DNA of 41,458 nucleotides from Lachnospiraceae bacterium (GTDB lineage Bacteria > Bacillota > Clostridia > Lachnospirales > Lachnospiraceae). The stretch lies in NCBI GenBank assembly GCA_017479285.1, contig JAFVCL010000101.1:1-41458 (forward strand), written 5' to 3'. The translations under genes and the position numbers were made by a program. The notes below the pieces were generated by a model. It was not told the DNA's origin. It did not search any database and worked only from the letters and a program-made list of their open reading frames with translations. This document shows positions 7,178 through 18,558 of the stretch, in pieces (within the stretch, counting starts at the first letter, position 1; every line of letters begins with the position of its first letter).

Positions 7178-10100
7178 ATGAGTAAAGTAGTGTCCCGTTT
7201 TTTGTGTAAAATTTTATTTAAGATGCAGGATTGTGTGAAAGCCGGAGCTGCGGGGGCAGCTCTGGTTTTTGCACTTTTTTTGATCTTTGCGCTTAATGCC
7301 GGAAGCGTTTCAAACGCGGCGGATTATGCTTCGGAGTACGGCGGCATAGTATATAATCTTGAAAACAAACTCGGAGTCAGCGAGGTAAATGCGGTAACGC
7401 AGATTGACGCGGGATATATATGGGTCGCTACATATACCGGACTGTATCAGTATAATGGCAATACCTTTACGAAGCTTGAGCTGGATGAGAGGATCAGAAA
7501 TGTAAAGGCTCTTCTTCCCAACGGAAGGGACGGGGTATGGATAGGCACTAACGATTCGGGACTGGCGTATTATTCCTTCAGGACAGGAGAGATAAAATTT
7601 TATACGACGGAGGACGGACTCGGCTCCAATTCCGTAAGGGTACTCTGCTACGGAAGGTCGGGAGAGCTTTATGTGGGAACAAATTCCTATCTTTCAGTAA
7701 TATCCGAAAACGGCGTACTTTCCACATACACCGGAAGCGAGGATATGTACTATATCCGGGGGATAAGCTGCCGCGCCGACGGCACGATCGCGGTTGTCTC
7801 AAACGGGGGAACCGTATTTGTAATAAAGGATGGCATTGTGAGCCAGACCTTTAACCGCGAGGATTCGGGGGAGAATTACACCGCTGTTAAATATGCATCC
7901 AGCGGGGACCTAATCATAGGAAGCTCGGACGGAAAGCTCTATACCGGAAAGCTTTCCGGGAGCAAGGTAACCATCAGCGCATATAAGGATACGAATTCCG
8001 TGGGAAGTATCGCCTATATGTATGAAAACAGCGAAGGAAATCTTATCATAGCCGGGGAAAACGGGATCGGCTATTTTGATGACAGAGGGAGATTTTATAC
8101 CATATCAAGGTTGGATTTTAACAATTCGATCTGTGATCTTTATGAGGATTATCAGGGAAATCTCTGGGCGGCTTCATCGAGGCTCGGACTTTTGAAGCTC
8201 TCAAAGAATCCCTTTACGAATGTCTTTTCCGTGGCGGGAATAGAGGACAGGATAGTCAATTGTATACTGATGTCAAAGGGAAAGCTTTATGTGGGCTGTG
8301 ACGACGGGCTTGTGATACTTAACGGGATTTCCTACAGACCGACAGCGGATGCCAAGCTCGATTTTTTATCCGGGGTAAGGATAAGACATATCCTCGAGGA
8401 CTCAAAGGGAAACCTCTGGATATCGACCTACGGGGAGGGGCTTTTCTGCTACGACGGGAATGAAGTGACTTCCTTCGCCGAGGAGGATGGGCTTTGCGGT
8501 GACAGGATAAGGCTGACCCTTGAGATGTCTGACGGACAGCTTGCCGTTGCCTCGTCCACAGGTATTTCCTTCATTAAGGACGGGAAGATCACGGGAAGCC
8601 TCGGAGCCGAGGACGGACTGAATGTTGAGCAGATACTTTGTCTTTACGAGACCGGCGACGGAAAGCTCTTTGCCGGAAGCGACGGGGACGGAGTTTATAT
8701 AATAGAGAACGGGAAGATAACCGGAAATATCGGATTGGAGCAGGGACTCGACGGACTCGTTGTCATGAGGATCGTGGAGACCGGGGAGCATTTTTATCTT
8801 GTGACCGGAAGCGACCTTTTTGTGTATGAGGACGGGGTCTGCAGGGCACTAAAGAATTTCCCGCACAGCAATAATTACGATATAATCGTTTCTTCCGACA
8901 ATAAGGCATGGGTCACCTCCAGCGCGGGGGTTTACATCCTTAAAGAGAGAGAACTTGCGGCAGATACGAATTATGTGGCGGACCTTTTAAACAGCGCGAG
9001 AGGTCTTAATGCCTCTCTGGTTGCAAATTCCTGGAACTATGTTGACGGCGGGGACAATCTGTATCTTTGCTGCTCCACGGGTGTAAAGTCGATACAGATG
9101 CAGAGCTACTCCGAGATCAATAATGATTTTGATGTTGATATAAGGGAGGTTAAGCTGGACGATACGGTTATCGAGCCGGATGAGGAGGGTGTTTATCATA
9201 TAACCTCCGATACAAAGAGGGTTACCTTCACGCCGGCTATACTTAACTACAGCCTCTCAAATCCTTTTGTAAGAATGTACCTCGAGGGCTTCGAGGAGGA
9301 CGGTGTTATACTCGGTCAGTCCGAGCTTAGGGAGCTAAGCTATACAAACCTCGCCTTCGGTAATTATATTTTCCATATACAGGTTCTTGATAATAAGCAG
9401 AATGTTGTCAAGGAAAAGACCGTGGAGCTCCACAGGGATGCGAAGATCTATGAGAGATCTCTTTTCTGGATAGGTGTTGCCGCCGCCGCGATAATTATGA
9501 TAATGGCGATAACATGGGCGCTTACCGAGAGAAGAAACGCAAGGATAATAAAGAACCAGTACGGACAGATCGAAAAGGCCAAGGAGGATGCGGAGAGGAC
9601 CAGTGAGTACAAGACGCTCTTTCTCGCGAATATGTCCCATGAGATAAGAACACCCATCAATACCATTATGGGTATGGATGAGCTTATACTGAGGGAGGAC
9701 ATTTCGAACCAGGTAAGACAGTACGCCAACGATATCTACATATCGAGCGAATCTCTCCTTAATATCGTAAATGACATTCTCGATCTTTCAAAGATAGAGT
9801 CCGGGAAGATGAACATTGTTCCGGTGGAGTACAGTATGTCGGAGATGCTCCGGGAGCTGGGAACGACTCTGCGGATGAAGGCTGAGGAGGCAAAGCTGCA
9901 GGTAATACTGGATTTCGACCCCGACCTTCCAGAGGGGCTCTACGGGGACAACAACAGGTTTAAACAGGTTATCACCAACCTTCTTACAAATGCCGTAAAG
10001 TATACCCAGAAGGGCTCCGTAACATTTAAGGCGGCGCTTCTGGACAAGCACGACTGCATGGCGGATATTGAGATATCCGTTATTGATACGGGAATCGGTA

Positions 10101-11161
10101 TCCGCAAGGAGGATATGTCAAGGCTCTTCAAGGAGTTTGAGAGGCTCGACGAGGAGAGAAACCACAGAGTGAGCGGTACGGGGCTGGGACTTCCGATAAC
10201 AAAGCAGCTTCTTGAGCTTATGGGCTCAAAGCTTGAGGTGGACAGCATCTATGAGGAGGGCTCCAATTTCCACTTTGTAATAAGCCAGAAGATAATCAGC
10301 GATGAGCGTATCGGCGAGCTGGATATGGAGGCCGCGCAGGACAGTGGCTTCGCGGTTTACAAGCCCTCCTTCATAGCGCCGGATGTAAGCATCCTCGTTG
10401 TGGACGATACGCCTCTTAACCTTGCGGTCATAAGGGGACTGCTCCGCTCCACAAAGGTACAGATAGACACCGGTGAAAGCGGACTTGTGGCACTTGAAAA
10501 AGTAAAGCAGAAAAAGTACGACCTTATCCTGCTTGATCATATGATGCCGGAGATGGACGGTATCGAGACCCTCGAGCAGCTTGGCAATATAAACCATAAA
10601 TGCATGGGTGTTCCCATCATCGTCCTTACCGCAAATGCCATCGCGGGAGCGAGGGAAAACTATATAAAGCTCGGATTTACCGATTATCTCTCAAAACCCG
10701 TTTCCGGAAAGGATCTTGAGACAATGCTTCTCAAGTATCTGCCGGCAGGCAAGCTCCTTCCGCCGGAGGGCGAGACCGCAAAGCCCGCCCCTGCGGAAAA
10801 GACACAGAACAGCGGATATTCGGGGCTTCATCTTGTGGATCCCGGGAGAGGTATCTCGTTCTGCGCAGGGGACGAAGAGCTATATAAGAGCGTGCTCGGA
10901 ATGTTTGTGGATGAGTATGATGAGGAGACAAGGGCTCTTCAGGATTATATCAATCTAAAGGACTCAAAGAAATTTGTCACTCACGCCCACAAGCTTAAGA
11001 GCTCCGCAAGAACCATAGGAGCCGATGAACTCTTTGAGAAGGCAAAGGATCTTGAGACTGACGGAAAAGAGGAAAACTGGGAGTCCATACAGAGAAAGTT
11101 CAGCTCTGTTATGCAGCTTTATCTTGATGTCGTTATGGAAGTAAAGACCAGGATGCTCTAA
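7178..11161 (+). CDS. Hybrid sensor kinase: propeller, Y_Y_Y, HisKA, HATPase, REC, Hpt
   Basis: A 1327-residue membrane sensor. A signal peptide (hydrophobic residues about 23-42, likely cut after SNA) leads into a long extracellular region of propeller repeats (about 45-640) with motifs such as IWVATYTGL and LWISTYGEGL. A Y_Y_Y-type beta domain (about 660-755) and a membrane helix (about 763-786) follow. The cytoplasmic part has the HisKA box NMSHEIRTP with His821, an HATPase domain (GTGLGLPI), a receiver with Asp1120 in LLDHMMPEMDG, and an Hpt domain with His1271 in HKLKSS. The sensor half resembles Bacteroides-type hybrid systems for polysaccharide sensing, but there is no DNA-binding domain, so the output protein must be elsewhere. 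The ligand is unknown. The start is not well supported by a ribosome binding site. Confidence 0.93.
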   Translation: MSKVVSRFLCKILFKMQDCVKAGAAGAALVFALFLIFALNAGSVSNAADYASEYGGIVYNLENKLGVSEVNAVTQIDAGYIWVATYTGLYQYNGNTFTKLELDERIRNVKALLPNGRDGVWIGTNDSGLAYYSFRTGEIKFYTTEDGLGSNSVRVLCYGRSGELYVGTNSYLSVISENGVLSTYTGSEDMYYIRGISCRADGTIAVVSNGGTVFVIKDGIVSQTFNREDSGENYTAVKYASSGDLIIGSSDGKLYTGKLSGSKVTISAYKDTNSVGSIAYMYENSEGNLIIAGENGIGYFDDRGRFYTISRLDFNNSICDLYEDYQGNLWAASSRLGLLKLSKNPFTNVFSVAGIEDRIVNCILMSKGKLYVGCDDGLVILNGISYRPTADAKLDFLSGVRIRHILEDSKGNLWISTYGEGLFCYDGNEVTSFAEEDGLCGDRIRLTLEMSDGQLAVASSTGISFIKDGKITGSLGAEDGLNVEQILCLYETGDGKLFAGSDGDGVYIIENGKITGNIGLEQGLDGLVVMRIVETGEHFYLVTGSDLFVYEDGVCRALKNFPHSNNYDIIVSSDNKAWVTSSAGVYILKERELAADTNYVADLLNSARGLNASLVANSWNYVDGGDNLYLCCSTGVKSIQMQSYSEINNDFDVDIREVKLDDTVIEPDEEGVYHITSDTKRVTFTPAILNYSLSNPFVRMYLEGFEEDGVILGQSELRELSYTNLAFGNYIFHIQVLDNKQNVVKEKTVELHRDAKIYERSLFWIGVAAAAIIMIMAITWALTERRNARIIKNQYGQIEKAKEDAERTSEYKTLFLANMSHEIRTPINTIMGMDELILREDISNQVRQYANDIYISSESLLNIVNDILDLSKIESGKMNIVPVEYSMSEMLRELGTTLRMKAEEAKLQVILDFDPDLPEGLYGDNNRFKQVITNLLTNAVKYTQKGSVTFKAALLDKHDCMADIEISVIDTGIGIRKEDMSRLFKEFERLDEERNHRVSGTGLGLPITKQLLELMGSKLEVDSIYEEGSNFHFVISQKIISDERIGELDMEAAQDSGFAVYKPSFIAPDVSILVVDDTPLNLAVIRGLLRSTKVQIDTGESGLVALEKVKQKKYDLILLDHMMPEMDGIETLEQLGNINHKCMGVPIIVLTANAIAGARENYIKLGFTDYLSKPVSGKDLETMLLKYLPAGKLLPPEGETAKPAPAEKTQNSGYSGLHLVDPGRGISFCAGDEELYKSVLGMFVDEYDEETRALQDYINLKDSKKFVTHAHKLKSSARTIGADELFEKAKDLETDGKEENWESIQRKFSSVMQLYLDVVMEVKTRML

Positions 11162-11173
11162 AAACAAAAAGTT

Positions 11174-12433
11174 ATGACAGGAAATCTACTGGATTATCTA
11201 ATTGAATACGGGGATACCCCCTTTTCGGAGATGCGCTTTACCGAGGTGGACGCGGCAGTACTTTGCAGGCTCTCGTATTACAATTTCGAGGGGATCGTCC
11301 CGGATATAAAGAGCGATATGCCCTCAGTCTCCCTTGCGAATATCATGCTTATGGAGGATCACGATGATATTTTTGAAAAGGGGAAATACGAGGAAGTCTC
11401 GAGGCAGATGGTCGGGCTTATGCTAAAGGGCCGGAGATTTAAAGGATTGCGTCTTGCCTGCTTTTCTTCCTGTCTCGACAGGGAAACGCAGACACAGTTT
11501 GCGGCCATAACCTTTATGACGGGACCGAGGCGTATGTTCGTCGTATTCAGGGGGACGGACAGGACCCTTATCGGGCTTAAGGAGGACTTTAACCTTCTGT
11601 ACACGGATCACGCAAAATGCCATGACTATGCGGTGGAGTATCTCAAGGTAATAAGCAGGAGGTATTCGCACAAGATATATGTCGGAGGGCATTCAAAGGG
11701 TGGACATCTTGCGGTATATGCCGCGATGCAGATGCCTCCGGAGATAAGCGGCCGGATCCACCGTATATACAGCATGGACGGGCTTGGACTGAGGCCATCG
11801 CTTATGAGGGACGGAAAATTCAAGGCAATCGAGGATAAGCTTTACAAGCTGCTTCCGCAGTCCTCGCTTATCGGCATGATGCTCGAGGATGACGGGCATT
11901 ACGAGGTTGTAAGCAGCACGGGACTTGCCCTTATCCAGCACAACCTTCTTACATGGGAGGTTGACGGGAAGAGATTTGTGCGGAGAAGGAAGCTGGCAAA
12001 CAACGCGGTCTTCGTGGAGCATACATTTAACGGCTGGGTCGAGAGCCAGGACGATTACAACAGAAAAAGATTTATCGACGGGATCTACAGTCTTATCGAC
12101 GCCTGCGAGGCGGAGCACCTGAGCAATCTTATATCCGACGGTGGAAGGAAGCTTGTTATGATCCTCGAGAATATAAAGGAACTCGATGACGAGAGCAAAG
12201 AGCAGATAAAGACTGTTTTAAAGGCCTTTGTTGTGGTGGCTAAGTTTTATCTGCGCTCCGATGTGGGAGAGGGCATAAAAAAGAGCGCGAGGACGGAGAC
12301 AAAAAAGCTTATAAACGGGAGCAAAAAGGCACTCAACAGCGGAATGAAAGCAATAAGCAGCGGGAAAAAGGCATTGAGCACCAGCAGGGAAGTACTTAAG
12401 AAGGGTACTGCAGCAATAAAGAGGGTGCTGTAA
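11174..12433 (+). CDS. Mbeg1-like (DUF2974) alpha/beta hydrolase
   Basis: A 419-residue protein of the Mbeg1-like lipase-fold family. It starts with NLLDYL and an FTEVDAAVLCRLSYY segment typical of the family, has an FRGTDRTLIGLKEDF oxyanion region, and a nucleophile elbow GHSKGG with Ser174. The substrate is unknown; lipase or esterase activity is inferred. The last ~45 residues are an unusual Lys/Ser-rich repetitive tail with repeated SGKKAL-like units, probably an amphipathic, positively charged helix that could bind membranes or cell-wall polymers. It lies 12 bases after the sensor kinase and is probably co-transcribed. There is no signal peptide. Confidence 0.88.
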   Translation: MTGNLLDYLIEYGDTPFSEMRFTEVDAAVLCRLSYYNFEGIVPDIKSDMPSVSLANIMLMEDHDDIFEKGKYEEVSRQMVGLMLKGRRFKGLRLACFSSCLDRETQTQFAAITFMTGPRRMFVVFRGTDRTLIGLKEDFNLLYTDHAKCHDYAVEYLKVISRRYSHKIYVGGHSKGGHLAVYAAMQMPPEISGRIHRIYSMDGLGLRPSLMRDGKFKAIEDKLYKLLPQSSLIGMMLEDDGHYEVVSSTGLALIQHNLLTWEVDGKRFVRRRKLANNAVFVEHTFNGWVESQDDYNRKRFIDGIYSLIDACEAEHLSNLISDGGRKLVMILENIKELDDESKEQIKTVLKAFVVVAKFYLRSDVGEGIKKSARTETKKLINGSKKALNSGMKAISSGKKALSTSREVLKKGTAAIKRVL

Positions 12434-12559: not shown

Positions 12560-13249
12560 ATGGTTGATATAGCGGCCGAGCTGCAGGAGCAGCTTAATAT
12601 CGAGACGGTTTTTACGGCGCGTATCGGTAATCTTGAGATTCCCTTCAGTGAATCGACGGTGGCGACATGGATTATAATAGGAATCGTTCTTGTCGTCTGT
12701 CTGATCCTCGGGACAAATCTCAGGGTAAGAGGCATTTCAAAAAGACAGGCTGCGGCAGAGTTCATCGTAACAAAGCTGGAATCACTGGTCGGAGATATGG
12801 TGGGTGAGGAAGGAAAGGCATTCGTGCCGTATCTTCTGGCGGTCTTCATATTTCTGCTTTTCTCCAACACCTTCGGGATATTCGGATTCAAGCCGCCGAC
12901 AAAGGACTTAAATGTTACCGCCGCGCTTGCGATACTGAGTATAATAATCGTCCAGATAGCGAATATAAGGGCAAACAATCCCTGGGGCTGGATAAAGAGC
13001 TTTGCAAAGCCTATCGCGGTCGTTACGCCGATAAACATACTCGAACTCGTCATAAAGCCACTCTCTCTGTGCATGCGACTTTTCGGTAATGTACTCGGAG
13101 CCTTCATCATAATGGAGCTTATAAAGTCCGTTGTCCCGGTGGCGCTGCCGGCGGTGTTCTCGCTTTATTTCGATCTCTTTGACGGAATACTTCAGGCGTA
13201 TGTATTTGTGTTTCTCACATCTCTTTACATAAAAGAGGCTGTTGAATAA
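12560..13249 (+). CDS. atpB: ATP synthase F0 subunit a
   Basis: A 229-residue multi-pass membrane protein and the first gene of the ATP synthase operon. The final third has the conserved half-channel helix LSLCMRLFGN with the essential Arg at residue 173, followed by the ALPAVFSLYFDLFDGILQAYVF helix pair. With the c ring it forms the ion path. An AAAGGAAG ribosome binding site precedes the ATG. No atpI or atpZ gene lies upstream. The 3' end (GGCTGTTGAATAAAA) is the source of a tandem repeat that fills the gap to atpE. Confidence 0.96.
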   Translation: MVDIAAELQEQLNIETVFTARIGNLEIPFSESTVATWIIIGIVLVVCLILGTNLRVRGISKRQAAAEFIVTKLESLVGDMVGEEGKAFVPYLLAVFIFLLFSNTFGIFGFKPPTKDLNVTAALAILSIIIVQIANIRANNPWGWIKSFAKPIAVVTPINILELVIKPLSLCMRLFGNVLGAFIIMELIKSVVPVALPAVFSLYFDLFDGILQAYVFVFLTSLYIKEAVE

Positions 13250-13332: not shown

Positions 13333-13548
13333 ATGTTAGCAATTGGAGCAGGAATCGCAGCACTTGCATGTATCGGAGCCGGACTCGGCATCGGTATCGC
13401 AACCGGAAAGGCAGTTGACGCTACTGCGCGCCAGCCCGAGGCAAACTCAAAGATAATGACGACCCTTATCCTTGGAGGTGCTCTTGCGGAGGCAACCGCG
13501 ATCTACGGATTCGTTATCGGTATCCTTATCATATTCATGCTTAAGTAA
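13333..13548 (+). CDS. atpE: ATP synthase F0 subunit c
   Basis: A 71-residue hairpin membrane protein that forms the rotor ring. The polar loop ARQPE is intact and the ion-carrying carboxylate is Glu53 in [10 protein letters not shown]. Compared with Na+-type c subunits such as that of Ilyobacter tartaricus, the position of Gln32 is Ile20 and that of Ser66 is Ala54. Two Na+ ligands are therefore missing and proton coupling is more likely. It has the strongest ribosome binding site of the operon (CGGAGG, 8 bases before ATG), fitting the high copy number of c. Confidence 0.96.
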
Positions 13549-13558
13549 AGGAGAGGAA

Positions 13559-14038
13559 ATGCTTAAGGTAGATATAAATTTACTGTTTACGGTAATAAAT
13601 CTTTTTATTCTCTTTTTTGTGATTTGGAAATTTCTCTTTAAGCCTGTAAAGAAGATCATAGCGGAGAGACAAAAGGAGGTTGAGGCCGGGTATGCCGAGG
13701 CGGACAAAGCCAAAGCGGATGCTGAGGAAACAAGGATTAAGCTGGAAGAACAGCTTAAGACTGCCGAGAGCGAGAAGGCCGAAATCTTAAAGGAAAGCCG
13801 TGTGAAGGCGGGCGAGGAGTACGACCGCATTATCGCCCAGGCTAACAGCGAGGCTTCCGGGATCCTGGAGGATGCAAAAAAGAACGCGGCAGAGGAGTCC
13901 GAGCGTCTTAAGAAGAAAGCGAACGAGGAACTCAGCGACCTTGTTTCAAAGGCCGCCGCTAAGATCGCGCTTACAAAGGAAGATCCCGATACGGACAGAA
14001 AGCTCTTTGATGAGTTTATAACAAAAACAGGTGAGTAA
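13559..14038 (+). CDS. atpF: ATP synthase F0 subunit b
   Basis: A 159-residue protein with one N-terminal membrane helix (about residues 6-26) followed by a long charged coiled coil rich in Ala, Glu and Lys, the classic peripheral stalk. An ATG at 13559 follows AAAGGAGAGG, so I start there rather than at upstream in-frame codons inside atpE. Length is normal. The expected atpH (delta) gene does not follow: atpA begins two bases after the stop. Confidence 0.95.
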   Translation: MLKVDINLLFTVINLFILFFVIWKFLFKPVKKIIAERQKEVEAGYAEADKAKADAEETRIKLEEQLKTAESEKAEILKESRVKAGEEYDRIIAQANSEASGILEDAKKNAAEESERLKKKANEELSDLVSKAAAKIALTKEDPDTDRKLFDEFITKTGE

Positions 14039-14040
14039 AA

Positions 14041-15810
14041 GTGGCCAGAAAGAAAACTTTTGAATGTACTCTCCGGTATGTTACAAAGCCCACAGACGAG
14101 CAGCTGGAGAAGATAAAAAATTTTGTATATAAAAAATATGCCTCTGAGGATATCCCCGAGGAGATAATAACCTTTGAGACCATAGAGGATAAAAGTCTCG
14201 GAAGCGGATTTATCTTAAAGTGCGGAAACGAGCAGTACAACTGGAGCAGCGAGGGGCGCACAAGGCAGTTTACGGAGGCAGTCGAGAAGGTAAGAAGGAG
14301 CCTGACCGGAGGAATGGATGTGGTATCCGTTCTCCGGACGACGGTGGAGGAATTCGAGCTTGCCGCCGCCCACAGACATGTGGGGACGGTATCCTATGTC
14401 GGCGACGGTATAGCGACCGTTACAGGGCTTCCCCACGCCGCATACGGGGAGATACTCCTCTTTGAGTGCGGCATAAAGGGAATGGTTCAGGATATAAGAC
14501 AGGACGAGATTGCCGCGATACTTTTCGGACCGGACAGGGAGATAAGAGTCGGCAGCAGGGTAACGAGAACCGTAAGAAGCGCGGGCGTTCCCGTGGGCGA
14601 AGGGTTCCTCGGCAGAGTCGTAAACGCACTGGGAGAGCCCATAGACGGCCTTGGAAGGATAGATGAGGCGGATTACCGTCCGATAGAAAATGCGGCTCCC
14701 TCCATAGTTGACAGAAAATCCGTGGATACCCCGATGGAGACGGGTATCCTGGCGATAGATTCCATGTTCCCGATAGGCAGGGGGCAAAGAGAGCTTATAA
14801 TCGGCGACAGGCAGACAGGAAAGACCTCCATAGCCCTTGATACGATAATAAACCAGAAGGGCAAGGGAGTTATATGCGTCTATGTTGCCATCGGACAGAA
14901 GGCTTCCACCATAGCGAAGCTTGTGGGAAATCTGAAAAAGCATGAGGCGATGGATTATACCATCGTTGTAAATGCCTCGGCATCGGAACCCGCGCCCTTA
15001 CAGTATATCGCGCCTTACGCGGGCTGTGCTCTGGCTGAGTACTTTATGTACAAGGGCAGGGATGTTCTTATCGTGTATGACGACCTGTCCAAGCATGCGG
15101 TAGCTTACAGAGCGCTCTCGCTTCTTTTGGAGAGACCGCCGGGAAGAGAGGCATATCCCGGAGATGTATTTTATCTCCACTCAAGACTTCTCGAGAGAAG
15201 CGCCAGATTAAATGAGAAAAACGGCGGCGGCTCCATAACCGCCCTTCCCATAATCGAAACCCAGGCTGGGGATGTATCGGCATATATCCCGACCAATGTT
15301 ATCTCCATAACCGACGGTCAGATCTATCTCGAGAGTACGCTCTTTAATCTCGGAATGAGACCCGCGGTAAATGTGGGACTTTCCGTTTCGAGAGTCGGCG
15401 GAGCCGCCCAGACAAAGGCGATGAAGAAGGCGGCGGGAAGTATAAGGATCGATCTTGCCCAGTTCAGGGAGATGGAGGTATTTACACAGTTCTCCTCCGA
15501 CCTTGACGCCACAACGAAGGCTCAGCTTGCCCACGGAAATATCCTTATGGAGCTTTTAAAGCAGCCCCTCGGAAAGCCTTTAAGCATGGCGGAGCAGGTA
15601 ATAACCCTTTGCGCGGCAAACGGAAGGGTCATGGAAGATATAAGGATCGACAGGATAAAGGAATTCCAGAACGGTCTCCTTGAATATATTGGCAGGGAGC
15701 ACCCGGAGATAATAAGTATTTTAAGGTCCTCGGGAAATCTTGACGACGGACTTAAGAGCCAGATACTTGAGGCCGCGAAGGAGTATAAGGAAATTTATTC
15801 GGAGGCATAG
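14041..15810 (+). CDS. atpA: ATP synthase F1 alpha with fused delta C-terminal domain
   Basis: A 589-residue protein. From about residue 86 it is an ordinary alpha subunit: helix VLRTTVEEFE, the VGDGIATVTGL crown barrel, Walker A GDRQTGKT at 255-262, and the arginine-finger region SVSRVGGAAQTK. The Walker A sits 86 residues further in than in E. coli alpha. Residues 1-85 are extra and resemble the C-terminal domain of the delta subunit: a CTLRYVTKPT strand, a helix, then IEDKSLGSGFILKCGNEQYNWSS, matching the delta pattern around its conserved LiGGf turn, and a last helix. The N-terminal six-helix domain of delta is missing, and no separate atpH lies in the operon. The start codon is GTG, two bases after atpF. 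The fusion is seen; the functional meaning is inferred. Confidence 0.93.
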   Translation: MARKKTFECTLRYVTKPTDEQLEKIKNFVYKKYASEDIPEEIITFETIEDKSLGSGFILKCGNEQYNWSSEGRTRQFTEAVEKVRRSLTGGMDVVSVLRTTVEEFELAAAHRHVGTVSYVGDGIATVTGLPHAAYGEILLFECGIKGMVQDIRQDEIAAILFGPDREIRVGSRVTRTVRSAGVPVGEGFLGRVVNALGEPIDGLGRIDEADYRPIENAAPSIVDRKSVDTPMETGILAIDSMFPIGRGQRELIIGDRQTGKTSIALDTIINQKGKGVICVYVAIGQKASTIAKLVGNLKKHEAMDYTIVVNASASEPAPLQYIAPYAGCALAEYFMYKGRDVLIVYDDLSKHAVAYRALSLLLERPPGREAYPGDVFYLHSRLLERSARLNEKNGGGSITALPIIETQAGDVSAYIPTNVISITDGQIYLESTLFNLGMRPAVNVGLSVSRVGGAAQTKAMKKAAGSIRIDLAQFREMEVFTQFSSDLDATTKAQLAHGNILMELLKQPLGKPLSMAEQVITLCAANGRVMEDIRIDRIKEFQNGLLEYIGREHPEIISILRSSGNLDDGLKSQILEAAKEYKEIYSEA

Positions 15811-15812
15811 CT

Positions 15813-18135
<2,323 letters not shown>

Positions 18136-18138
18136 ATT

Positions 18139-18558
18139 ATGGGCGACAGCTTTTATTTAAAAATCTTGGCAGTTGACAAGGTTCTCTATGACGGTAACGC
18201 GGTATCCCTTATTTTTCCCGCGCCGGACGGGGAATTCCAGATAATGGCTCATCACGAAAATGTTGTTGTCGCCATAACCGAAGGCACTGTTAAGATAAAG
18301 CCCGAGAAGGGCGCAAACTGGGTGGAGGCCATCGTCGGCAAAGGTTTTGTGAGCATGGAGTCAAATATCGTCTCCGTGCTTGTTGACAGCGCGAACTGGC
18401 CGGATGAGGTTCTGGAGGCAAGGGCAAAAGAGGCGATGGAGAGGGCAAAGGAGCAGCTCCGTCAGGACAGGAGTATTCAGGAATACAATATCTCCCGCGC
18501 AACGATAGCGAGGGCAATGGTAAGACTTTCACAGGGAGAGAAGGCACCTCTGGAGTAG
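18139..18558 (+). CDS. atpC: ATP synthase F1 subunit epsilon
   Basis: A 139-residue protein with an N-terminal beta sandwich (LKILAVDKVLYDG, FPAPDGEFQIMAHHENVV) and a C-terminal helical pair (ARAKEAMERAKEQL, ATIARAMVRLSQ). Epsilon links the gamma shaft to the c ring and can inhibit ATP hydrolysis through its C-terminal helices. It begins 3 bases after atpD. It is the last ATP synthase gene, but a membrane protein gene follows after only 9 bases, so transcription probably continues. Confidence 0.95.
   Translation: MGDSFYLKILAVDKVLYDGNAVSLIFPAPDGEFQIMAHHENVVVAITEGTVKIKPEKGANWVEAIVGKGFVSMESNIVSVLVDSANWPDEVLEARAKEAMERAKEQLRQDRSIQEYNISRATIARAMVRLSQGEKAPLE

What the first reader, a model, noticed from the sequence alone, without database searches (positions are those of the whole stretch)
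14041..15810. ATP synthase without atpH: delta C-terminal domain fused onto alpha
Seen: atpF and atpA are two bases apart with no delta gene, and alpha has about 85 extra N-terminal residues whose SLGSGFIL...NEQYNWSS stretch follows the pattern of the delta C-terminal domain. The Walker A is displaced by 86 residues relative to E. coli alpha. Known: delta's N-terminal domain sits on the three alpha N-termini and its C-terminal domain holds the b dimer; mycobacteria fuse delta to b, but I know of no described fusion to alpha. Inference: the adaptor domain is lost and each of three alphas carries a b-binding domain, so the enzyme could have up to three possible stalk sites or leave two unused.
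Basis: partly seen in the sequence, partly recalled or inferred. Interest (0 to 1): 0.87.

Follow-up and report, generated by a model that had tools for sequence, protein, structure and literature searches.

The report
Delta-to-alpha fused ATP synthase
This Clostridia bacterium carries a second ATP synthase in which half of the clamp protein that anchors the stator stalk is built onto the alpha subunits, as in a 2025 laboratory design that assembled up to three stalks, so multi-stalk ATP synthases may exist in nature and can now be tested.

Summary
The window encodes an F-type ATP synthase (atpB-E-F-A-G-D-C) without atpH, and alpha begins with about 85 extra residues homologous to the delta/OSCP C-terminal domain (hhalign 98.9%, E 2e-17; fold). 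It is no assembly error: 29 of 31 genomes of the genus, own included, match it. Two corrections. The genome does hold a full atpH, in a second, canonical F-ATPase on other contigs whose c subunit has a Na+-type pattern; the window's c is H+-type. And delta-to-alpha fusion is in print: PMC12229609 (2025) engineered it (deltaΔN-alpha), saw up to three stalks and three a subunits, and noted natural cases in Acidaminococcus. The junction profile's best PDB hit is that engineered protein (9JC1). New here: of 196 sampled Clostridia genomes, 121 have a delta match and 28 of these carry such a fusion, 20 without a separate full delta found; full-length delta-alpha fusions and stand-alone C-terminal-domain genes also occur; a single origin is rejected on a subset tree (p-AU 0.001, post hoc). 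Most likely each alpha carries a b-binding domain and the enzyme can mount more than one stalk; stalk number is untested.

The parts
12560..13249 (+). atpB, subunit a
   Evidence: Pfam PF00119 145 bits; NF004486 305 bits over cut-off 272
13333..13548 (+). atpE, subunit c, H+-type ligand pattern (no Gln in helix 1, Ala after the Glu of helix 2)
   Evidence: Pfam PF00137 67 bits; ligand columns (reference sequence and rule recalled)
13559..14038 (+). atpF, subunit b (159 aa); C-terminal LFDEFI-like tail also seen in b of some operons with separate delta
   Evidence: Pfam PF00430 62 bits; ten tails printed
14029..14035 (+). Shine-Dalgarno-like AGGTGAG before the GTG start
   Evidence: read; 68 of 80 fused genes have an SD-like site before the delta part
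14041..14310 (+). delta/OSCP C-terminal domain and short linker, fused in frame to alpha (OSCP match residues 2-79)
14311..15810 (+). alpha subunit body, including its own N-terminal helix (DVVSVLRTTVEEF) and Walker A
   Evidence: TIGR00962 750.6 bits over cut-off 484 on residues 93-586
15813..16733 (+). atpG, subunit gamma
   Evidence: PF00231 295 bits
16726..18135 (+). atpD, subunit beta
   Evidence: TIGR01039 812.9 bits
18139..18558 (+). atpC, subunit epsilon with both domains
   Evidence: PF02823 61 bits and PF00401 28 bits

Best explanation
This is an H+-type F1Fo ATP synthase in which the delta (OSCP) clamp has been cut down to its C-terminal, b-binding domain and joined to the N-terminus of alpha. 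Shown here: the domain's identity, the loss of the N-terminal domain from the operon, conservation in the genus, and no conserved internal start, so all three alphas should carry it. Inferred: each copy can hold the C-terminal end of a b dimer as delta does; with the axial N-terminal domain gone, nothing blocks threefold symmetry, so the enzyme can carry more than one peripheral stalk, each with its own a subunit, raising the H+/ATP ratio and letting it run at low proton motive force. In this genome it works beside a separate canonical enzyme of Na+ type. My odds: identity 0.97; working without any delta N-terminal domain 0.9; more than one stalk in a good part of the molecules 0.55; direction of work (synthesis at low pmf, or an ATP-driven pump moving many H+ per ATP) open.
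For: Homology and fold. The junction profile's top PDB hit is the engineered PS3 deltaΔN-alpha chain 9JC1, aligned across the junction with a one-residue gap (profile 9-120 to chain 4-114; model 8-122 to 6-115). Engineered precedent with up to three stalks and three a subunits and H+/ATP 5.8 (PMC12229609, passages and whole Discussion). Working without free delta: of 41 genomes reached through loci, 13 have one gamma and, as their only OSCP match over or near the cut-off, a C-terminal-domain-alpha fusion (G075 G078 G080-G083 G086-G090 G092 G095); in the class sample, 20 of 28 fusion genomes show no separate full delta at E 0.001. Internal starts: 19 of 64 and 4 of 16 fused genes against 241 of 830 and 63 of 208 control windows; SD-like sites at the real start in 37 of 43 separate alphas and before the delta part in 68 of 80 fused genes. 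Ion types: own canonical c QVETTY, window c ILEATY. Repeated origin suggests that it is useful or well tolerated.
Against: No stoichiometry, structure or activity was measured for any natural member. The Pfam score of this one protein is below the gathering cut-off. A single stalk with two idle domains fits every sequence fact. Full-length delta-alpha fusions keep the N-terminal domain that, in the 2025 paper's reading, limits stalks to one, so fusion alone does not imply several stalks. The model's pLDDT is moderate (mean 63; 72-85 over residues 1-60) and under 50 over residues 87-123; the Z margin over unrelated folds is 8.6 against 5.8. Same-genus genomes do keep a canonical delta as well (29 of 31). 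The window itself has an SD-like site before an internal GTG.
Confidence: 0.6

Rival explanations
1. Single-stalk enzyme: one of the three fused domains holds the only b dimer; the other two are idle because a and b are made at the usual ratio or because a second a does not fit the c-ring.
For: [quoted passage not shown] Full-length delta-alpha fusions (16 of 136 classed rows) would have three N-terminal domains for one axial site, so surplus copies seem tolerated. The engineered enzyme had about two stalks on average, not three.
Against: Engineered deltaΔN-alpha took up extra stalks; the N-terminal domain that is held to block this is missing in the window.
Confidence: 0.38
2. The fused polypeptide is processed: an internal start or a protease makes plain alpha, so only about one alpha in three keeps the domain and the enzyme is ordinary.
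For: The window itself has GGAGG seven bases before an in-frame GTG near the native alpha start (sequence; L009 row).
Against: Not conserved: 19 of 64 and 4 of 16 fused genes show such a site, like control windows, 241 of 830 and 63 of 208. Protease processing cannot be tested here.
Confidence: 0.08
3. The canonical delta from the second operon joins the fused enzyme and supplies the N-terminal domain.
For: 29 of 31 genomes of the genus also carry a full-length delta.
Against: That delta sits in its own operon with b and alpha (L111); other genomes with the fusion show no full delta.
Confidence: 0.06
4. Assembly artefact or chance similarity.
For: Single-sequence Pfam score below cut-off.
Against: Match in 29 of 31 genomes of the genus and fusions in many named assemblies, hhalign E 2e-17, fold match.
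Confidence: 0.01

Closest known systems
Engineered Bacillus PS3 deltaΔN-alpha FoF1 (PDB 9JC1/9JC2, PMC12229609)
   Same: delta C-terminal domain on the alpha N-terminus, N-terminal domain deleted, native alpha helix kept, near-equal linker length
   Different: Man-made; epsilon C-terminal domain also removed; stalk number measured there, unknown here
Natural delta-alpha fusion of Acidaminococcus fermentans and UniProt G4Q3K6, A0A1I2C5T3 (reported in PMC12229609)
   Same: Fusion with missing N-terminal domain
   Different: Another lineage (Negativicutes, recalled); its sequence was not obtained, so kinship is untested
Mycobacterial/Gordonia b-delta fusion
   Same: Stator clamp fused to a neighbour subunit
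   Different: There delta is fused to b (PMC5709465 passages), with its N-terminal domain kept (recalled); fold rows match only its last part, about residues 370-443
N-ATPase
   Same: No atpH gene
   Different: Other gene order and longer b (passages of PMC5709465 and PMC5706428); TIGR03324, taken as its alpha model (recalled), scores 611.8 under its cut-off 750.5 here
H+- and Na+-dependent ATP synthases of butyrivibrios
   Same: Two F-ATPases of differing ion type in one genome; the P. xylanivorans operons L031 and L070, with H+-type c, carry a full delta-alpha fusion
   Different: The review passage seen (PMC11026938) mentions no fusion; P. ruminis itself was not examined here

Membership tests
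F-type ATP synthase | alpha, beta, gamma of F type | tested here: met
   TIGR00962 750.6/484.5, TIGR01039 812.9/462.9, TIGR01146 257.3/194.5 bits against cut-offs
F-type ATP synthase | a, c, b, epsilon in the operon | tested here: met
   Pfam over cut-off for all four; b misses the NCBIfam cut-off TIGR01144 narrowly, 64.2/65.5
F-type ATP synthase | separate delta (atpH) gene | tested here: not met
   two bases between atpF and alpha; no delta N-terminal domain found in the window
delta/OSCP subunit (PF00213) | C-terminal domain fold and motif | tested here: met
delta/OSCP subunit (PF00213) | gathering score for this protein | tested here: not met
   20.9 (90 aa) and 16.3 (whole) against 22.3
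delta/OSCP subunit (PF00213) | N-terminal helical domain | tested here: not met
deltaΔN-alpha fused FoF1 (PMC12229609) | delta C-terminal domain joined to alpha, N-terminal domain missing | tested here: met
deltaΔN-alpha fused FoF1 (PMC12229609) | more than one peripheral stalk and a subunit | not testable with these tools
   needs purified enzyme
N-ATPase | gene order starting with beta-epsilon and the alt_F1F0 alpha model | tested here: not met
   order a-c-b-alpha-gamma-beta-epsilon; TIGR03324 611.8 against 750.5
b-delta fusion | delta joined to b | tested here: not met
   b is 159 aa and ends before the fusion starts
Na+-type Fo | Gln in helix 1 and Ser/Thr after Glu in helix 2 of c (rule recalled) | tested here: not met
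   window c ILEATY; own second operon QVETTY (reference sequence recalled)

The most novel reading that the evidence does not exclude
[quoted passage not shown] They would break the one-stalk rule of F-type ATP synthases.
Probability: 0.45. Interest if true: 0.93.

Novelty: new member of a known kind. Interest (0 to 1): 0.7.

Why it matters
The known enzymes have one stator stalk, in the 2025 paper's reading because one delta sits on the threefold axis. If natural enzymes lack that block and carry a clamp on every alpha, H+/ATP could vary by stalk number as well as by c-ring size, which changes the energy budget of anaerobes living at low proton motive force. That paper predicted natural multi-stalk enzymes from a few sequences; this survey gives dozens, some in cultured species, plus intermediates and genomes where the fusion is the only F-ATPase found, so the prediction can be tested directly.

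Tried and rejected
Assembly error: rejected by conservation. Chance match: rejected. Internal start giving plain alpha: no enrichment; the separate-alpha control (41 of 65) also counted some beta genes, and one search repeated it on alpha alone (37 of 43). One single origin: rejected on a 36-row subset picked after seeing the 128-row tree, so those p values are post hoc. Ech as partner of the H+ enzyme: PF00346, used as its marker (recalled), was found in 0 of 31 genomes of the genus, and in 8 of 35 genomes reached through loci, both P. xylanivorans among them, so it is not a general partner; Rnf is present in the own genome. Foldseek 'pdb' could not be run; the VIA second look rests on Foldseek's list. 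Not done: the second structure job, any estimate of stalk number from ribosome-site strength, the Acidaminococcus sequence. Literature: ten answered searches of the open-access library, listings seen; passages of PMC5709465, PMC4478896, PMC6131620, PMC5706428, PMC4154653, PMC11026938, PMC7793690 and passages plus the Discussion of PMC12229609 read. In what I saw only PMC12229609 describes a delta-alpha fusion, and none tells of it in Clostridia; subscription papers and preprints are mostly not held.

Full report
What is in the window. The operon reads atpB 12560-13249, atpE 13333-13548, atpF 13559-14038, alpha 14041-15810, atpG 15813-16733, atpD 16726-18135, atpC 18139-18558. Two bases separate atpF from the GTG of alpha, and there is no delta gene. 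Alpha is 589 aa; GDRQTGKT starts at residue 255.

The genome. The window is contig C42 of a 2.67 Mb, 102-contig assembly, 87.5% complete. A second F-ATPase lies on C99, whose first bases fall inside b (b, full-length delta of 182 aa, alpha, gamma, beta, epsilon). An a and a c gene stand at the end of contig C18, which breaks off about 130 bases after c; I take them for its missing half (inference). Their c has the ligand pattern Q-V-E-T-T-Y, the Na+ pattern; the window's c has I-L-E-A-T-Y, the H+ pattern (the rule and the reference sequence are recalled). Of 68 c rows in C-terminal-domain-fusion loci none shows Gln at that place (one has a gap there; duplicates included). Rnf is present; PF00346, my marker for Ech, was not found in the own genome nor in any of 31 genomes of the genus, while the same search finds it in both Pseudobutyrivibrio xylanivorans genomes and in 8 of 35 overall. 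One same-genus locus, L020, lies within a record named uncultured Lachnospiraceae bacterium RUG638 (L046), and L036, also named Lachnospiraceae, sits in the genus clade.

Spread. In the genus 29 of 31 genomes match the extension (one cut by a contig end), and 29 of 31 hold a full-length delta. Reading the frames of 80 named loci and of 38 fetched stretches showed five states: I, separate delta; II, full-length delta joined to alpha, 671-691 aa (for example Lachnospiraceae GAM79, P. xylanivorans, Ruminococcus); III, C-terminal domain joined to alpha, about 580-655 aa where not cut; IV, a stand-alone gene of 81-113 aa for the C-terminal domain between atpF and atpA (L124, L125, L126, L137); V, the C-terminal domain on the end of b in N-ATPase-like operons (L134, L135). 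Of 136 classed alpha rows, duplicates and same-genus rows included, 70 are III, 45 I, 16 II, 3 IV and 2 V; L124 was added by hand.

Census. In 196 genomes of the class (the own genome plus an even draw at 90% completeness or more) 121 have an OSCP match at E 0.001; in 28 of these, own included, the match lies in an alpha-length frame: 5 of state II and 23 of state III (my count from the rows). Twenty-three of the 28 were checked gene by gene (and the window), G168 with alpha cut by a contig end; G190, G143, G270, G217 and G254 rest on frame length alone. Eight of the 28 also show a separate full delta; 20 do not. In 41 genomes reached through loci, hence no random sample and of untold completeness, 13 have one gamma and only a state III fusion, and 6 have one gamma and only a state II fusion. 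So the fused enzyme is often the sole F-ATPase found, and the N-terminal domain seems dispensable there.

Origin. On an alpha-core tree of 128 rows the states interleave: state III needs 11 changes, at least 5 of them forced by well-supported branches. On a 36-row subset one clade of all III rows is rejected (p-AU 0.0012) and one clade of all fused rows too (p-AU 0.008); L032 (III) pairs with L033 (II) at 98/90, and L127 (III) groups with L029 and L030 (II) at 95/96. The subset was chosen after the first tree. The likely path is fusion of whole delta, then repeated loss of its N-terminal domain; transfer between lineages is not excluded.

How it works. In known enzymes delta's N-terminal domain sits on the threefold axis of F1 and its C-terminal domain binds b. 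PMC12229609 (Nat Commun 2025; passages, and the whole Discussion) removed the former, joined the latter to alpha, and saw up to three stalks and three a subunits, H+/ATP 5.8 against 3.0, and ATP synthesis at lower pmf. The natural protein of the window matches that design across the junction. No conserved internal start would make plain alpha, and an SD-like site sits before the delta part in 68 of 80 fused genes, so three clamps per F1 are expected. The C-terminal tail of b looks alike in the fused and several separate-delta operons among ten printed. What is inferred is that more than one clamp is used. A single stalk with two idle clamps remains possible, and the full-length fusions suggest that surplus copies can be tolerated.

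Against what is known. The same paper reports a natural fusion lacking the N-terminal domain in Acidaminococcus fermentans and two further UniProt entries and predicts multi-stalk enzymes there. The window is therefore a further member of a kind already named, in another lineage. What the searches named under Tried and rejected did not turn up is its spread in Clostridia, the intermediates, its repeated origin, and the pairing of a fused H+-type enzyme with a canonical Na+-type one. A review passage says butyrivibrios encode one H+ and one Na+ ATP synthase and that both activities were detected in P. ruminis (PMC11026938); in P. xylanivorans the operon with H+-type c is a full delta-alpha fusion, so a biochemically studied group may already hold one.

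Noticed in passing
L124 4970-5254 (-), L125 4676-4948, L126 4795-5037, L137 4305-4643: Stand-alone genes of 81-113 aa coding only the delta C-terminal domain, between atpF and atpA, in four genomes of the class; Pfam OSCP 43-60 bits, over the cut-off, for the three scanned. A delta without its N-terminal domain and not fused.
   Followed up: partly
L134 1367-2125, L135 4221-4982: In N-ATPase-like operons the C-terminal end of the long b subunit matches the delta C-terminal domain (PF00213 32 bits over cut-off 22.3 for L134), whereas a published passage compares that b with the A-type E subunit.
   Followed up: partly
L132 6064-8454: In genome G211 gamma and beta form one open frame of 797 aa with no stop between rotor and stator subunits; beta keeps its own ATG with an AAGGAAGG site before it. 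One draft genome; could be a base error.
   Followed up: partly
L143 4560-4985 (-): A 142-aa frame matching only the delta N-terminal domain (60 bits), in a genome that also has a normal delta operon (L142).
   Followed up: no
L136 4010-4864: A 285-aa frame with delta N- and C-terminal matches set apart by about 130 residues, in the genome that also has the stand-alone C-terminal gene of L137.
   Followed up: no
L078 3844-4197, L086 3500-3955, L144 2623-3785: Two or more c-subunit genes, or a double c protein, in one operon.
   Followed up: no
G076 (genome of L055): Three OSCP matches in fusion-like frames and four gamma matches on separate contigs; mixed assembly or several copies.
   Followed up: no
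window 7178-11161: Hybrid sensor kinase of 1327 aa with propeller repeats, Y_Y_Y, HisKA, HATPase, receiver and Hpt domains, next to an Mbeg1-like protein (11174-12433) just upstream of the operon.
   Followed up: no
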